Shown: positions 9,521 through 16,746 of the stretch, in pieces
Numbering within the stretch: position 1 is the first letter of the stretch
Layout: every line of letters begins with the position of its first letter
Assembly: GCF_028290885.1 (NCBI RefSeq)
Contig: NZ_JAQGIZ010000054.1
Coordinates: forward strand, 1 to 32,109
Direction: 5' to 3'
DNA from: Phenylobacterium sp.
Lineage (GTDB): Bacteria > Pseudomonadota > Alphaproteobacteria > Caulobacterales > Caulobacteraceae
Length of the DNA stretch: 32,109 nt
Made by a program: the position numbers and the translations under genes
Notes under the pieces: generated by a model
Databases searched by the model: none
Seen by the model: the letters and a program-made list of their open reading frames with translations, nothing else
What the model was told of the DNA's origin: nothing

Positions 9521-10108
9521 ATGACCAAGTCGACTGCGGCCTTCGTCACCGCCCTGGCGCTGGCGGCGGGACTCGCCGCCTGCCAAACCGCCACCCCCTA
9601 CCAGCCCTACGTCCGCGGCCAAGCCACCTCCGGCGGCTATTCCGAGACGCGGATCGAGCCGGACCGCTGGCGGGTGAACTTCTCCGGCAACAGCATGACC
9701 TCGCGCGAGACCGTCGAGGGCTACCTGCTGTTCCGCGCCGCCGAGCTCACCCTGCAGAACGGCTACGACTGGTTCTCGATCGTCGACCGCCATACCGACC
9801 GCAATGCGCGGACCTATGTGGAGCCGGATCCGCTCTACAATCCCTGGTATGGCCCGGGCTTCGGCTACTGGCGACCGTCCTGGCGGTTCCGCGGCCGCGG
9901 CCTTGGCTGGCGCACCTGGGACCCTTGGTTCGGCGACCCCTTCTGGGCTGACCGGATCGATGTCCGGACGGTCGAGAACTTCGAGGCCTCCGCGGAGATC
10001 ATCACCCACAAGGGCGCCAAGCCTGTCGGCGATCCGCGCGCCTTCGACGCCCACGCCGTGGTGGACAACCTGAGGCCACGCATCCAGTACCCCGCGCCGC
10101 CGAAGTAG
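9521..10108 (+). CDS. putative lipoprotein
   Basis: Signal peptide and lipobox ALAAGLAAC; 195 aa; downstream RWRVNFSGNSMTSRETVEGYLLFRAAELTLQNGYDWF resembles conserved alphaproteobacterial lipoproteins. Confidence 0.85.
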   Translation: MTKSTAAFVTALALAAGLAACQTATPYQPYVRGQATSGGYSETRIEPDRWRVNFSGNSMTSRETVEGYLLFRAAELTLQNGYDWFSIVDRHTDRNARTYVEPDPLYNPWYGPGFGYWRPSWRFRGRGLGWRTWDPWFGDPFWADRIDVRTVENFEASAEIITHKGAKPVGDPRAFDAHAVVDNLRPRIQYPAPPK

Positions 10109-10111
10109 CGC

Positions 10112-10678
10112 TCAGAGCAGGTAGGCCGCGCCGCCCAGAACGAGCCCCAGCAGGCCAAGGCCGATGGAGCTCAGCCAGAAGGTGCGGCGCCGGGTGACGA
10201 TCGCCACCGTGCACAGCGCGATGCCGATCTCCAGCAGGGTGGCGGCCGCCGTCAGCCAGTGGTGGTGGCGCTCGTGGACGTGGCTGGCGGCCAGCAGCTT
10301 GTCGCGCTCGGCCTCGTCCTCCTGGGCCTGCTTCTTGAGCTCGGCCTGCTTGGCGCCCTGCTCCTTGGCCGTGCCCTGGTATTGCGCCGCCTTCGGCCCG
10401 CCGACGTCGGCGGCGATGCCGTAGAGGTGCTTCTTCAGGCTGTCGGCCTGGTACTCGCCCCAGACGTCGGTGGCCTTGTCCTGGTTCAGCACCGCTTCGC
10501 TGGCCGAGGTGATCGCGCCGCCGGCCTCCACGGTCTCCAGGCTGCCGACGCTGGCCGCCAGCACCGCCAGGACGGCGATGGTGATCGACACGCGGGAGAT
10601 GAACGGGTCGTGCTCGTGGGCTGCGTGTTCGGCGTGCTCGGCGTGCTCGTGGGCTTCGAGCGCGGGATCGTGGGTCAT
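10112..10678 (-). CDS. DUF4337-like membrane protein with His-rich N-terminus
   Basis: MTHDPALEAHEHAEHAEHAAHEHDPFISRVSITIAVLAVLAASVGSLETVE..., two terminal TM segments. Confidence 0.75.
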   Translation of the reverse strand: MTHDPALEAHEHAEHAEHAAHEHDPFISRVSITIAVLAVLAASVGSLETVEAGGAITSASEAVLNQDKATDVWGEYQADSLKKHLYGIAADVGGPKAAQYQGTAKEQGAKQAELKKQAQEDEAERDKLLAASHVHERHHHWLTAAATLLEIGIALCTVAIVTRRRTFWLSSIGLGLLGLVLGGAAYLL

Positions 10679-10753: not shown

Positions 10754-12529
10754 TCAACGCACCCGGAAGATCTGCAGCGGCTCTCCGGGCCGTGAGAGGC
10801 GCTCGAGCCACGCGGGGACGCGGCCCGCGTCCAGGGCCTTCTGCAGGCTGTCCGCGGCCAGGCCCTGGCGGTCGCTCTGCGCGGCGTGGGCGGGGCAGTT
10901 GAGGACATAGGCGACCTTTAGCGCCCGGATGCGGCGTTCGGCCTTGGCCGGCTGCGCGCCTAGCGCCGCGCGGGCTTCACGAATACCCCAGCCCATCCGA
11001 TGGTAGGGCGCCTGCAGGGCGGCGTCCGGCGTGTCGGCGAGGATGTAGGGCCCTTCGTCGATCTCGCTGAGCACCAGGCCGGGGGCCAGCCGCGCCAGAG
11101 GCCGGAAAGCCTGGGTGTCGTTGCAGCGGTCGCCGGCGGACGCGGCTTGGGCCACCCGCGCCGGAGCGGAGGGGTGGCCGGCCCGGCCGGCCGCCGCGCC
11201 TGCCGCCAGTCCGGGAACCTGGGTGACGGCCACCAGCACGGCGACGGCGGGGACCATCAGGCCGGCCAGCGCGGCGTCGGCGAGGTCGACCAGCGCCGCG
11301 GCGGTCACCGGCGCGGCGAACCACAGGGAATACTGGATCGAACGGCTGGCCTGCAAGGCCATGGGGATGGAGACGGCCAGCAGCGCCCCGGTCGCCAGCC
11401 AGGCCGGATTGGCCCGCATGTCCGCCCGCCGCCCGAGCCACAGCCATCCGAGCAGGCCCGCCACCGCCGGCGCCGCCAGGTTGATCGCGGTCGGCGGGTC
11501 GCGGGCGAGCAGCGTCAGCCAGGGCGTCATCTCGCGCACGTTGGCCAGCCAGACGGCCTTGAGCTCCGGATCGACGCCCGCCATCGGCCCCCGGAGGCAG
11601 AGCGGCTCCACGGCCACATAGACGGCCCCGGCCAGGACTCCCACGACCGCCAGAACCCCAAGACGCCCCAGCCGGCCCCACCGCTCCCCGAGCGCCGGCG
11701 CCAGGCAAAGGCCCGCCCCCGTCACGCCGAGGCCGGCCGCCAGGTTGACCGCCAGGGCGTCGCAGGCCGGCAGCAGCCAGCGGTCGGGCGGTGTCTGCAG
11801 CGCGCCCAGTCCCAGGGCGCCCAGCCCCAGCGCGGCGCCATAGGCGACCAGGACGCGGCCGGGACTTCGCCGGAACGCCCACGAGAGGCCCATGGCGACG
11901 CCGATCATCGCCGCGAACGGCAGGGCCTCCAGCCCGACGGCGAGACCCAAGGCGGTCGCCAGGCCGCAGAGCGCGCCCCAGATGGCCGCCGGGCGCTGGG
12001 TCGCCGCGGCCAGCGCCAGCAGGCAACAGGTGATCTGGATATTGTGATGGTCCACCCGACCGGGCTGGAACTCGCCGGAGGCATGCAGGCTGAGCGCGGC
12101 GGTCACCATGCCCAGGAACACCGCCCGTCCGCCGCCCAGCCGGCGCGCGATCAGCAGCACGGCGACGGTCAGCGGCAGGATCCAGAGCACCGGCCAGATC
12201 AGGCGCATGGCCATCTCCGCCCGGTCTATGGGCAGAACGCTGGCGAACAGCTTGAGCAGCACCGCCTCCGCCCCGTCCACCAGCCGCGACCAGTGCGTGT
12301 AGAGCCCGGTCGGCGGCTGCAGCCGGCTCAGCCTCTGGTCGAACCAGCCGCGCCCGGCGACCAGGTCGCGGACCATGGTCAGGCGCAGCGCATCGTCGGT
12401 GTCGCCCACCGTGCGGAGCAGGCGCGGCCAACTGACCACCGCCGCCGCGCAGGCGATCAGCCACACGATCGACGCGGCCGCCGCCAACCGGCGCGGCGAT
12501 GAATAGTCGGGAATGGGGGAAAGCTTCAC
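10754..12529 (-). CDS. large polytopic membrane protein, possibly GT-C-type glycosyltransferase-like
   Basis: 591 aa, many TM segments; GDTDDALRL and DHHNIQ motifs in early loops are reminiscent of GT-C enzymes. Confidence 0.7.
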   Translation of the reverse strand: MKLSPIPDYSSPRRLAAAASIVWLIACAAAVVSWPRLLRTVGDTDDALRLTMVRDLVAGRGWFDQRLSRLQPPTGLYTHWSRLVDGAEAVLLKLFASVLPIDRAEMAMRLIWPVLWILPLTVAVLLIARRLGGGRAVFLGMVTAALSLHASGEFQPGRVDHHNIQITCCLLALAAATQRPAAIWGALCGLATALGLAVGLEALPFAAMIGVAMGLSWAFRRSPGRVLVAYGAALGLGALGLGALQTPPDRWLLPACDALAVNLAAGLGVTGAGLCLAPALGERWGRLGRLGVLAVVGVLAGAVYVAVEPLCLRGPMAGVDPELKAVWLANVREMTPWLTLLARDPPTAINLAAPAVAGLLGWLWLGRRADMRANPAWLATGALLAVSIPMALQASRSIQYSLWFAAPVTAAALVDLADAALAGLMVPAVAVLVAVTQVPGLAAGAAAGRAGHPSAPARVAQAASAGDRCNDTQAFRPLARLAPGLVLSEIDEGPYILADTPDAALQAPYHRMGWGIREARAALGAQPAKAERRIRALKVAYVLNCPAHAAQSDRQGLAADSLQKALDAGRVPAWLERLSRPGEPLQIFRVR

Positions 12530-12720: not shown

Positions 12721-12783
12721 TATCGCGGAAATTTGGAGCGGGCGAAGAGATTCGAACTCTCGACCCCAACCTTGGCAAGGTTG
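12721..12783. repeat. attachment-site direct repeat, tRNA remnant side
   Basis: tatcgcggaaatttggagcgggcgaagagattcgaactctcgaccccaaccttggcaaggttg, identical to 16659-16721; includes truncated tRNA-Gly 3' half (12734-12783). Confidence 0.95.
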
Positions 12784-12893: not shown

Positions 12894-12915
12894 CGGTGGT
12901 GACCCGGTGGTGACC
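12894..12915 (+). promoter_or_regulatory. two tandem 11-bp CGGTGGTGACC motifs (candidate integrase arm/Xis sites)
   Basis: 12894-12904 and 12905-12915 identical; the motif recurs near the opposite element end at 16584-16594. Confidence 0.55.
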
Positions 12916-12937
12916 GGACTGGAAAACCGAGGCGCTA

Positions 12938-14290
12938 ATGAAAGAGCGAATCAGCAAAGCAGTCGCGGACTCAGCCGAGCCAGCCGACGCCCGATATACG
13001 ATCTGGGACGACGAACTTCCAGGCTTCGGGCTCCGCATCGAGCGCACCGGCGCCAAGACCTTCGTCGTGAAATATCGGGGTGGCGGAGGGGGCCGAAATG
13101 CGCCGCAACGGCTGATGTCGCTTGGGCGTCATCCGACTGTGAAGGTGGCCGAAGCGCGACGGAAGGCGGCGAAGGTGTTGGCGGCTGCGTCGCTCGGCCA
13201 TGACCCGGCCGGTGAGCTAGCGGAGAAGCGCCGGCAGATGACCGTGGCCGCGCTCGTCGACCTCTACGAGGAAGACGGCCTTGTCGTTCAGCGGGGCGCA
13301 AAGATCGGCAGCCCCATGAAGCCGCTTACTGCCAAGTACACAATGGCCCGCCTTCGCCATCACGTGGTTCCGCTGTTGGGCTCGCGCCGTGTCGCAGAGC
13401 TGACCGAGGGGGACATAGAGGCGTTCGTTCGCGCCGTAGCGAAGGGCAAGACCGCAAAGGACGAGAAAACCGGACCTCGGAAGCGCATCATCGTTCGCGG
13501 CGGCGAGGGCGCGGCGCGAAAGGTCGTCAGGGACCTCTCGGCGGTACTCTCGTTCGCCCAACGCCGCCGGATCATCTCAGATAACCCGGTGGCCACTGCC
13601 TCTGTGAGGAAGACAGACGGGCGCCGCGAGCGCTTCCTGACCTTCGAGGAGGTCAAGCGGCTCGGGAAGGCTTTGGATGAACTTGAGACCGCCGGCGCCC
13701 GCGGCCCCGACAAACGCGGCAACCGGCTCGAACCGGCCAATCGCAAGGCGCTCAATATCACCCGCCTGTGGGCGCTGACTGGCTGTCGCCGCAACGAGAT
13801 CGCGGCCCTTGAGTGGAGTTCAGTGGACCTGGGGCGGGGTCTTCTGATCTTCGACGAGTCGAAGACGGGCCGCTCCATCCGACCGCTTGCAGCGCCCGCC
13901 GCGGCGCTCTTGGAGGTCATACGGGAGGCCGCCGTGCCTGGCGCGGCCTACGTCTTCCCTGCCGAGCGGGGGGATGGCCATTACACGGGCACGAAACGCG
14001 TATGGCCGGAGGCGGTGAAGCGCGCGGGGCTGCCAGGCGTAAGCCCGCACACGCTGCGCCATACGCTCGGCGCCGCTGCCGCGTCCGGTGGTGAGGGGTT
14101 GCTGTTGGTGGGCGCGATCCTCGGGCATGCCAACGCGCGCAGCTCGCAGATTTACGCCCACGTCGATAGGGACCCCGCCAGGCTGGCGGCTGATCGGGCC
14201 ACGGCTGGGATTGCGGCTGCGCTAGGCCGGCCGACTGCCAGCGCCAACGATACGCATCCGGTGCCGCAGGCCGCGAACGACGCAGCCTGA
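12938..14290 (+). CDS. int: tyrosine-type site-specific integrase with DUF4102-like N-terminus
   Basis: DDELPGFGLRIERTGAKTFVVKYRGGG...LGRHPTVKVAEAR N-domain; catalytic ALTGCRRNEIAALEW, HTLRHTLGAA, LGHANARSSQIYAHV. Confidence 0.96.
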   Translation: MKERISKAVADSAEPADARYTIWDDELPGFGLRIERTGAKTFVVKYRGGGGGRNAPQRLMSLGRHPTVKVAEARRKAAKVLAAASLGHDPAGELAEKRRQMTVAALVDLYEEDGLVVQRGAKIGSPMKPLTAKYTMARLRHHVVPLLGSRRVAELTEGDIEAFVRAVAKGKTAKDEKTGPRKRIIVRGGEGAARKVVRDLSAVLSFAQRRRIISDNPVATASVRKTDGRRERFLTFEEVKRLGKALDELETAGARGPDKRGNRLEPANRKALNITRLWALTGCRRNEIAALEWSSVDLGRGLLIFDESKTGRSIRPLAAPAAALLEVIREAAVPGAAYVFPAERGDGHYTGTKRVWPEAVKRAGLPGVSPHTLRHTLGAAAASGGEGLLLVGAILGHANARSSQIYAHVDRDPARLAADRATAGIAAALGRPTASANDTHPVPQAANDAA

Positions 14291-14398: not shown

Positions 14399-14902
14399 GT
14401 GAGCGTAAAAGCTGAAGTCGTGATCGATGAACAGGATGAAGAACCGCTCATCCTGTTTGGCCCCGACGATGCGGCCTCCCTTGGCACCTCCGAAACGGAA
14501 GACCTCTTCGCTTCCGGGGACAGCTACGGCCCTTACGTTGGCGCAGTGTTCGCACCCATCCAGGCCGCGCCTTTTGTGGCGGGCTTGCCCTTTGATGGCG
14601 ATCCGTGCGTCGGCCTTCCGTCGACATCCGGGGCGACCTGCGACGGGTATTTTCAGGGGCCGACAATCGGCGGTCAGTCCGACCTGCTAAACTTCAAACC
14701 ATCGCATCTGACGATCTCGGTCGACGGAACTCTGCCAGACGAGTTGCTGTCCATTCCTGAGCCCTCGACTTGGACGATGATGTTGGCCGGGTTCTTTGGT
14801 GTGGGAACGGCTCTGCGCCGCCGGTTCGGCCTTGGTGCGGGGGGCGGGAGGCGCGCCCGTCACGGGAAAAACAGGTCAACCCGCAATCTCATCCCCGCCT
14901 AG
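14399..14902 (+). pseudogene. PEP-CTERM-like ORF lacking signal peptide, with aberrant C-terminal extension
   Basis: SIPEPSTWTMMLAGFFGVGTALRRR matches PEP-CTERM; no signal peptide at the GTG start; 23 or so residues follow the basic cluster. Confidence 0.65.
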
Positions 14903-15162: not shown

Positions 15163-16140
15163 ATGACCTGGCGAGAGGGGATGGCGCCTGACGATCTTCA
15201 GGCGTTCACGCTTTTCCACCCCTATGCGGCCGAGCGGCTGGACGACGCTGAGCGGGAACGGCGCCGCTTCGTCCATTACACGTCAGCCGACGTCGCAATG
15301 AGCATCATCAAGAACCGATCGGTTTGGATGCGCAACGCGATGACCATGAATGATTTCTCCGAAATCCAGCACGGCTTCAAGTGCTTGGCCTACGCATGGG
15401 GTCAGGACGAAGGTGGGAAACAGATCAAGGGTCTCTTGGATGAGGTACAGCCCGGCCTTGCGCAAGTACTAGAAAATCAGTTCGACGGCTGGCTTCCAAA
15501 CTTCCAGGCCCGCACGTACGTGACTTGCATATCGGAACACCGCGATGAGGAGAACGAACACGGGCGCCTTTCGATGTGGCGAGCATACGGTGGCACATCC
15601 GGGGTCGCTCTAGTAATCAACTCCGGCCCATTTATGAGCAACAACGACAAGTCAGCGGCCTATTCGAGCCCCGTTGCCTACCTCTCGCCGGAGAGCTTTG
15701 CGGCTCAGATGCGCCAAATCGCCGAGACGATGGCGGCGTCCCGCCCGTTGCTGGCCCGGTTGGGGGCAACTGCGCTCCAAGGCCATGTTTTCTCGATGTT
15801 GACGACCGCCATGGTTTGCACAAAGCACCCCGGCTTCGGCGAAGAGTTGGAATGGCGGGTCGTCTACAATCCTGACCTCAGCCGGTCGGCCGCGATCGTG
15901 GAAGCTGTGGAGACCGTACGCGGCGTTCCGCAGATCGTGCAAAAGCTTCCTCTCGTGAACGACCCTGATAACGGACTTGAGGGCGCCGCCCTGCCCGACC
16001 TTTTGGAAAAAGTGATCATCGGGCCGACTGACCATCAAACCTCGCTCCGTCATGCGTTCGTCGCCTTGTTGCAGGAAGCAGGCGTCCCCAATGCGCACGA
16101 ACGCATCACAATCTCAGGGATACCGCTTCGACACAGCTAG
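15163..16140 (+). CDS. DUF2971-domain protein
   Basis: RFVHYTSADVAMSIIKNRSVWMRNAMTMNDFSEIQHG, LSMWRAYGGTSGVALVI, KHPGFGEELEWRVVY typical of DUF2971; alternative GTG start at 15148. Confidence 0.87.
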   Translation: MTWREGMAPDDLQAFTLFHPYAAERLDDAERERRRFVHYTSADVAMSIIKNRSVWMRNAMTMNDFSEIQHGFKCLAYAWGQDEGGKQIKGLLDEVQPGLAQVLENQFDGWLPNFQARTYVTCISEHRDEENEHGRLSMWRAYGGTSGVALVINSGPFMSNNDKSAAYSSPVAYLSPESFAAQMRQIAETMAASRPLLARLGATALQGHVFSMLTTAMVCTKHPGFGEELEWRVVYNPDLSRSAAIVEAVETVRGVPQIVQKLPLVNDPDNGLEGAALPDLLEKVIIGPTDHQTSLRHAFVALLQEAGVPNAHERITISGIPLRHS

Positions 16141-16189: not shown

Positions 16190-16564
16190 CTGAAAACGGT
16201 AATTCTGATCACAATTCTTGCGACGCTGAGTCTGTTCGGCTGCCAGAAGTCGCCTCCAGCCCCAACTCAAGCACCATCACCGGCCGCGGTGCCGAAGACT
16301 GTGGAACCAGGGTCACTGGCCGCAGACCCCGGCCTGCAAATGTATCGGGGCCTGGCGCACCTACGGCAGGCCGAGGACAAGTGGATGGAGCTCAACGAGG
16401 CTTGTAGAGGCGGATCGGGCGACGATGCGAAGACCTTGGCCGCATGCGACGCGCGCGAGAAATTGGGCGCGGACCTCAAGGAAGTGGGCTTCTGCTACGG
16501 GGAGCACCCGGAGAAAGCGCAAGACCACATCATTCCTTCCGGGTGGGAAGCCTGCGCTAGCTAA
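16190..16564 (+). CDS. small Cys-containing lipoprotein (probable non-ATG start)
   Basis: Reading the 16289 frame upstream gives (L)KTVILITILATLSLFGCQKSPPAPTQAPSPAAVPKTVEP...; lipobox LFGC; GGGGG at 16180-16184 before CTG 16190; in-frame stop TAG 16178-16180. Confidence 0.6.
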   Translation: MKTVILITILATLSLFGCQKSPPAPTQAPSPAAVPKTVEPGSLAADPGLQMYRGLAHLRQAEDKWMELNEACRGGSGDDAKTLAACDAREKLGADLKEVGFCYGEHPEKAQDHIIPSGWEACAS

Positions 16565-16583: not shown

Positions 16584-16605
16584 CGGTGGTGACCGGGTGA
16601 TGACC
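16584..16605 (+). promoter_or_regulatory. tandem CGGTGGTGACC/GGGTGATGACC motif (candidate integrase arm site)
   Basis: 16584-16594 identical to the left-end motif; 16595-16605 differs at 2 positions. Confidence 0.5.
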
Positions 16606-16624
16606 GAGCAAATTGCAACGCGCC

Positions 16625-16658: not shown

Positions 16659-16721
16659 TATCGCGGAAATTTGGAGCGGGCGAAGAGATTCGAACTCTCG
16701 ACCCCAACCTTGGCAAGGTTG
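16659..16721. repeat. attachment-site direct repeat, intact tRNA side
   Basis: 63 bp identical to 12721-12783. Confidence 0.95.
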
Positions 16722-16746
16722 TGCTCTACCACTGAGCTACGCCCGC
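16672..16746 (-). tRNA. tRNA-Gly(GCC)
   Basis: Reverse complement GCGGGCGTAGCTCAGTGGTAGAGCACAACCTTGCCAAGGTTGGGGTCGAGAGTTCGAATCTCTTCGCCCGCTCCA folds as a cloverleaf; anticodon GCC; encoded CCA. Confidence 0.98.

What the first reader, a model, noticed from the sequence alone, without database searches (positions are those of the whole stretch)
15163..16140. DUF2971 protein as the main cargo: candidate anti-phage effector
The only full-length, well-conserved cargo gene on this small element is a DUF2971 protein. Uncharacterised DUF2971 proteins are, as I recall, often in variable or defence-type loci. It has an early HYTS motif, a MND-x2-E motif and a late E-x-E-W-R (EELEWR, 15841-15858). I hypothesise an ADP-ribosyltransferase-like fold with the late ExE as a catalytic glutamate pair.
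Basis: inference. Interest (0 to 1): 0.65.

Follow-up and report, generated by a model that had tools for sequence, protein, structure and literature searches.

The report
Mobile solo DUF2971 gene, probably ADP-ribosyltransferase-like
A tiny mobile DNA element in a Caulobacteraceae bacterium carries one intact gene of a widespread unexplained family, and its sequence profile suggests an enzyme related to toxins that attach ADP-ribose to DNA and to the lactococcal abortive-infection protein AbiGi; protection against phage is a reasonable guess but is not shown.

Summary
An intact 325-aa DUF2971 gene (15163-16140, +) is the only full-length cargo of known family on a 3.9-kb integrase element in tRNA-Gly, bounded by an exact 63-bp repeat; relatives show the empty site. 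The AlphaFold model is confident (pLDDT 96.6), but Foldseek finds no significant relative; ART-fold proteins appear only among insignificant hits. Profile comparison does better. DUF2971 matches AbiGi (hhalign probability 89%, score 47) and, more weakly, DarT (score 28-34), against at most 21.8 for 40 unrelated families. H38-Y39-T40 and N63-D64 align with the NAD-binding H17-F18-T19 and N48-D49 of DarT1. Placing E230 on the DarT1 catalytic Glu is my inference; the C-terminal profile match is not significant. No partner gene recurs. The family is patchy (9 of 199 Caulobacteraceae genomes) and frequent in prophages and plasmids, but a near-versus-far PADLOC comparison showed no defence-gene enrichment. 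Best reading: a stand-alone DarT1/AbiGi-like ART or NAD-consuming conflict effector. ART relationship about 0.65; phage defence about 0.5.

The parts
12721..12783 (.). left copy of the 63-bp exact direct repeat (attL-like; partial copy of the 3' part of tRNA-Gly)
12938..14290 (+). tyrosine integrase, P4-type (Arm-DNA-bind_3 + Phage_integrase)
   Evidence: PF00589 E 1.8e-17, PF13356 E 1.1e-14; phrog_1 E 8e-47
14399..14902 (+). ORF with a C-terminal PEP-CTERM sorting signal and no evident signal peptide; probably a truncated remnant
   Evidence: PF07589 E 2.3e-5; translation
15163..16140 (+). DUF2971 gene, 325 aa, intact; candidate ART-like effector
15274..15285 (+). H38-Y39-T40-S41 in predicted strand beta-1; aligned with H17-F18-T19 of DarT1 (NAD binding)
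   Evidence: PMC11543638
15346..15363 (+). M62-N63-D64..E67; the ND aligns with DarT1 N48-D49 (NAD phosphate contacts)
   Evidence: PMC11543638
15568..15588 (+). L136-S-M-W-R-A-Y142 helix; proposed equivalent of DarT1 M71-F72 (inferred)
15841..15858 (+). E227-E228-L-E230-W-R232; E230 proposed as catalytic Glu, E228-x-E230 as the ART [E/Q]xE motif (inferred)
16190..16564 (+). putative small lipoprotein (LFGC lipobox), apparently CTG start; no recurrent association with DUF2971
16659..16721 (.). right copy of the 63-bp direct repeat (attR-like)
16672..16746 (-). intact tRNA-Gly(gcc), the integration target

Best explanation
The gene encodes a stand-alone enzyme of the ADP-ribosyltransferase (ART) fold, most like DarT1 and AbiGi. 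It would bind NAD+ with H38-Y39-T40 in the first strand and N63-D64 in the NAD loop, and use E230 (with E228 as the substrate-side residue of an ExE motif) to break the nicotinamide bond, either transferring ADP-ribose to a macromolecule, perhaps nucleic acid, or hydrolysing NAD+. It is carried as a single-gene conflict effector by a minimal integrative element in tRNA-Gly, plausibly acting against phages or rival elements in an infection-triggered way, since no antitoxin gene accompanies it. Shown here: intact conserved gene, mobile element, empty site in relatives, AbiGi profile link, modest DarT link, no partner gene. Inferred: ART fold, catalytic residues, NAD use, target, defence function.
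For: AlphaFold2 gives a confident single domain (pLDDT 96.6, pTM 0.92), and the order of strands and helices fits beta1-alpha1-beta2 ... beta3-helix-beta4 ... Glu strand ... last strand-helix. The broad DUF2971 profile against AbiGi scores 47.2, probability 88.8%; against DarT sets 28-34, while 40 unrelated families reach at most 21.8 and column-shuffled alignments at most 20.8. DarT against Tpt1, accepted ART relatives, scores 28.8 in the same test. hhalign itself puts HYT on HFT and ND on ND of DarT1; in DarT1 these residues contact NAD (PMC11543638). Y39, N63, D64, E67, E228 and E230 are conserved in essentially all of 58-88 diverse members. Mobile and patchy: 9 of 199 Caulobacteraceae genomes, 43 and 62 viral contigs, 110 plasmids; no neighbour family within 1.5 kb in more than 6 of 136 loci. 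Individual defence neighbours: directly after qatD on pAtC58, beside an abortive-infection gene on E. coli plasmids.
Against: Foldseek of both models against PDB has no hit at E<=0.001; the best ART hit, Tpt1, has E 0.7-1.3 and probability 0.13-0.18. The DarT profile match is only 12-37% probable by hhalign's own scale. The C-terminal part with the catalytic Glu does not match DarT significantly, and hhalign prefers another strand there. PADLOC hits were not more frequent near the gene than beyond 6.5 kb (31 versus 49 families). PADLOC has no model that matches the protein. AbiGi alone was not toxic in E. coli (PMC3985639).
Confidence: 0.5

Rival explanations
1. A metal-dependent nuclease or other hydrolase: the conserved acidic residues D64, E67, E227, E228 and E230 with K221 would bind metal and cut nucleic acid.
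For: All these residues are invariant or nearly so, and mobile conflict genes are often nucleases.
Against: No nuclease family in Pfam or PADLOC, and no PDB hit of a nuclease fold at useful significance. The order K221 before ExE does not fit PD-(D/E)xK. The DarT and AbiGi profile links are not explained.
Confidence: 0.12
2. An ART-like fold that no longer transfers ADP-ribose: a pure NAD+ hydrolase, or an inactive ligand-binding or antitoxin-like protein, as AbiGi is annotated in databases.
For: Closest profile relative AbiGi is annotated as antitoxin and neither AbiGi nor AbiGii alone was toxic in E. coli (PMC3985639). The catalytic-Glu assignment is uncertain.
Against: The putative active-site residues are invariant across very diverse members, which argues against an inactive protein. 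No toxin partner recurs, which argues against an antitoxin.
Confidence: 0.2
3. A passenger on a decaying mobile element with no role in defence; DUF2971 proteins do housekeeping or element-maintenance work.
For: The rest of the element's cargo looks degraded or unrecognised. Defence neighbours are not enriched. In E. coli many copies are truncated.
Against: The family is broad, patchy and mobile, with strict conservation of a catalytic-looking residue set, as expected of conflict genes rather than housekeeping genes.
Confidence: 0.18

Closest known systems
DUF2971 (Pfam PF11185)
   Same: Passes the curated cut-off; all conserved motifs present
   Different: Nothing: it is a member; the Pfam model covers only residues 138-233, whereas conservation spans the whole protein
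AbiGi (PF10899), abortive infection protein of Lactococcus
   Same: Collinear profile match, probability 53-89%, with shared H[FWY]T, C[FI][ST][ED], YG..GI, PV.Y and ExEWR pattern
   Different: Not over the AbiGi Pfam cut-off; no AbiGii partner; AbiGi function itself is not established
DarT1, guanine-specific DNA ADP-ribosyltransferase of DarTG1 (PDB 8baq)
   Same: HFT and ND NAD-binding motifs align; same order of strands; [Q/E]xE before a strand (inferred)
   Different: Profile score modest; DUF2971 is longer, has a beta-hairpin between the Glu strand and the last strand (from the model), and has no NADAR or DarG antitoxin beside it
Tpt1/KptA, CteC and PARP (other ART-fold enzymes)
   Same: Appear among Foldseek hits of the two models
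   Different: All hits insignificant; TM-scores at most 0.26

Membership tests
DUF2971 (PF11185) | score above the curated Pfam cut-off | tested here: met
   36.6 bits versus 22
[quoted passage not shown]
ART superfamily | NAD-binding H or R in the first strand | tested here: met
   H38 conserved in 71 of 88, Y39 in 88 of 88; hhalign aligns HYT with HFT of DarT1
ART superfamily | catalytic Glu at the end strand, often as [E/Q]xE | tested here: inconclusive
   E228-x-E230 invariant; alignment to DarT Glu not significant
ART superfamily | NAD+ cleavage or ADP-ribose transfer | not testable with these tools
   needs biochemistry
DarT (PF14487) | Pfam cut-off and macrodomain or NADAR antitoxin partner | tested here: not met
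   no DarT hit in Pfam; no recurrent partner
AbiGi (PF10899) | Pfam cut-off | tested here: not met
   one search lists DUF2971 only, although profile-profile similarity is strong
Anti-phage defence gene | enrichment next to known defence genes | tested here: not met
   PADLOC families at 1e-10: 31 among 129 near genes, 49 among 129 far genes; a crude test, counting families not genes
Anti-phage defence gene | protection against phage | not testable with these tools
   needs phage challenge

The most novel reading that the evidence does not exclude
DUF2971 and AbiGi together form an unrecognised clade of DarT1-like ADP-ribosyltransferases, carried widely as antitoxin-free single-gene effectors by prophages, plasmids and integrative elements, which would also explain the unsolved biochemistry of AbiG abortive infection.
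Probability: 0.4. Interest if true: 0.72.

Novelty: new variant of a known kind. Interest (0 to 1): 0.5.

Why it matters
DUF2971 is a common domain of unknown function: 325 candidate loci in one genome scan, and 348 of 5,426 E. coli genomes carry at least part of one variant. The held library has one paper that mentions it, a genome reannotation, and none on PF11185. Placing it with AbiGi and DarT1 gives point mutants to test (H38, Y39, N63, D64, E228, E230) and links it to AbiG, an abortive-infection system described in the 1990s.

Tried and rejected
PADLOC, PHROGs and PDB sequence searches with the protein or its profile gave no functional family. Foldseek of two different models (long window form, short prophage form) against PDB, and of the first against BFVD, gave no significant annotated match. 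BFVD hits to a betabaculovirus ORF32 and iridovirus 422L recall the ORF28 family that Iyer et al. relate to DarT (PMC9503650), but I could not show that these proteins belong to it, so this is only a lead. Tpt1 profile comparison ranged from background to slightly above it (scores 15.5-26.4). A search for a conserved partner gene found none; the commonest neighbour within 1.5 kb, in 6 of 136 loci, appears to be a serine recombinase. A near-versus-far defence test was negative. An association of the lipoprotein with DUF2971 was not found: lipoprotein relatives lie in 3 other Caulobacteraceae genomes, none of which is among the genomes with DUF2971 hits.

Full report
What is there. The gene at 15163-16140 (+) is intact and codes for 325 aa. 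It passes the Pfam cut-off for DUF2971. It lies in a small integrative element: a P4-type integrase at 12938-14290, and an exact 63-bp direct repeat at 12721-12783 and 16659-16721, the right copy overlapping the 3' part of an intact tRNA-Gly(gcc) on the minus strand. Eleven relatives matched with the right flank show that tRNA region once, without the element. The DUF2971 gene has lower GC (0.59) than the flanks (0.69), as expected of acquired DNA.

Distribution. Close relatives (40-50% identity) are in 9 of 199 sampled Caulobacteraceae genomes, the window's own included. A genome scan found 325 candidate loci, of which 80 were kept, in Pseudomonadota, Nitrospira and others. Two scans of viral contigs gave 43 and 62 loci, partly overlapping, and 110 plasmid records hold a relative. 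None was found in the collection of phage records. Neighbours in viral contigs include terminase, portal, tape measure, integrase and repressor genes, so the gene sits at varied sites.

Conservation. In 88 diverse members Y39, D64, E67, S137, W139, R140, Y142, Y173, K221, F225, E228, E230 and R232 are invariant, N63 is present in 87, H38 in 71. A 58-member set centred on short prophage forms agrees.

Structure. AlphaFold2 gives pLDDT 96.6 and pTM 0.92 for the window protein and pLDDT 88.5 for a short prophage form. Foldseek against PDB finds nothing at E<=0.001 for either. Tpt1, an ART-fold enzyme, is ranked first and second, without significance. For the short form 5 of 38 listed hits are ART-fold entries (Tpt1, three of one Chromobacterium effector bound to ubiquitin, one PARP); that effector is the ADP-ribosyltransferase CteC (PMC10810742, identification mine). 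This is a hint, not a proof.

Profiles. DUF2971 against AbiGi (6 sequences) gives probability 53% with the first alignment and 88.8% with the broad one, score 47.2. Against DarT the score is 28-34. Controls: 60 column shuffles per comparison reach at most 20.8, reversed alignments 14.3, and 40 unrelated families at most 21.8. DarT against Tpt1 scores 28.8. So the AbiGi link is firm and the DarT link is above background but weak in itself.

Residue mapping. hhalign places the DUF2971 HYT on the DarT1 HFT and the ND on the DarT1 ND. In DarT1, H17 and T19 contact the adenosine ribose, F18 stacks on nicotinamide, and N48-D49 hold the phosphates (PMC11543638). The MWRAY helix lies where DarT1 has KMFYKY, by my reading. 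The last step, E230 as the catalytic Glu (DarT1 E152) and E228 as Q150, rests on the register through AbiGi members such as ELEWRIV...DDVKTVLIP against QAEVLV...YVKEIFV (by eye). The unaided C-terminal profile comparison with DarT is not significant and prefers another strand. I mark this step as inferred.

Context and function. No neighbour family recurs within 1.5 kb in more than 6 of 136 loci; the gene is a single-gene cargo. Individual neighbourhoods look defensive: directly downstream of qatD on pAtC58, beside an abortive-infection gene in E. coli. A solitary AbiGi gene sits beside Avs4. But 129 near genes matched 31 PADLOC families and 129 far genes 49, so enrichment was not found. The test counts families rather than genes and is crude.

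Verdict. Observation confirmed. The ART reading is supported by profiles and by conserved NAD-site motifs, not by fold search; I give it about 0.65. The anti-phage role is about 0.5. The combined statement gets 0.5.

Noticed in passing
window 10754-12529 (-): A 591-aa ORF without a Pfam match lies between the left flank and the element; in relative L255 the homologue of window 10007-10678 ends about 90 bp from the tRNA, so this gene is absent there and the site seems variable beyond the element itself.
   Followed up: partly
window 14399-14902 (+): ORF with a C-terminal PEP-CTERM signal but no evident signal peptide, probably a truncated exosortase substrate.
   Followed up: partly
window 16190-16564 (+): Small putative lipoprotein with an apparent CTG start; residues 65-112 match phrog_25984 (E 2.4e-12), and relatives of this part occur in three other Caulobacteraceae genomes.
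   Followed up: partly
window 12894-12916 and 16584-16606: 23-bp imperfect repeats (CGGTGGTGACC...) inside both ends of the element, possible arm-type integrase sites.
   Followed up: no
L013 7962-8786 (pAtC58): A short-form DUF2971 gene directly follows qatD of a Qat defence system in Agrobacterium fabrum C58.
   Followed up: partly
L179 1438-2259: A solitary AbiGi-family gene without AbiGii, about 540 bp from avs4 on an E. coli plasmid.
   Followed up: no
L014 and L264: In E. coli the DUF2971 gene follows a KfrA-like DNA-binding gene and a hypothetical gene and precedes an abortive-infection family gene; it is annotated as broken in some copies, and O157:H7 plasmids keep only a 181-bp piece.
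   Followed up: partly
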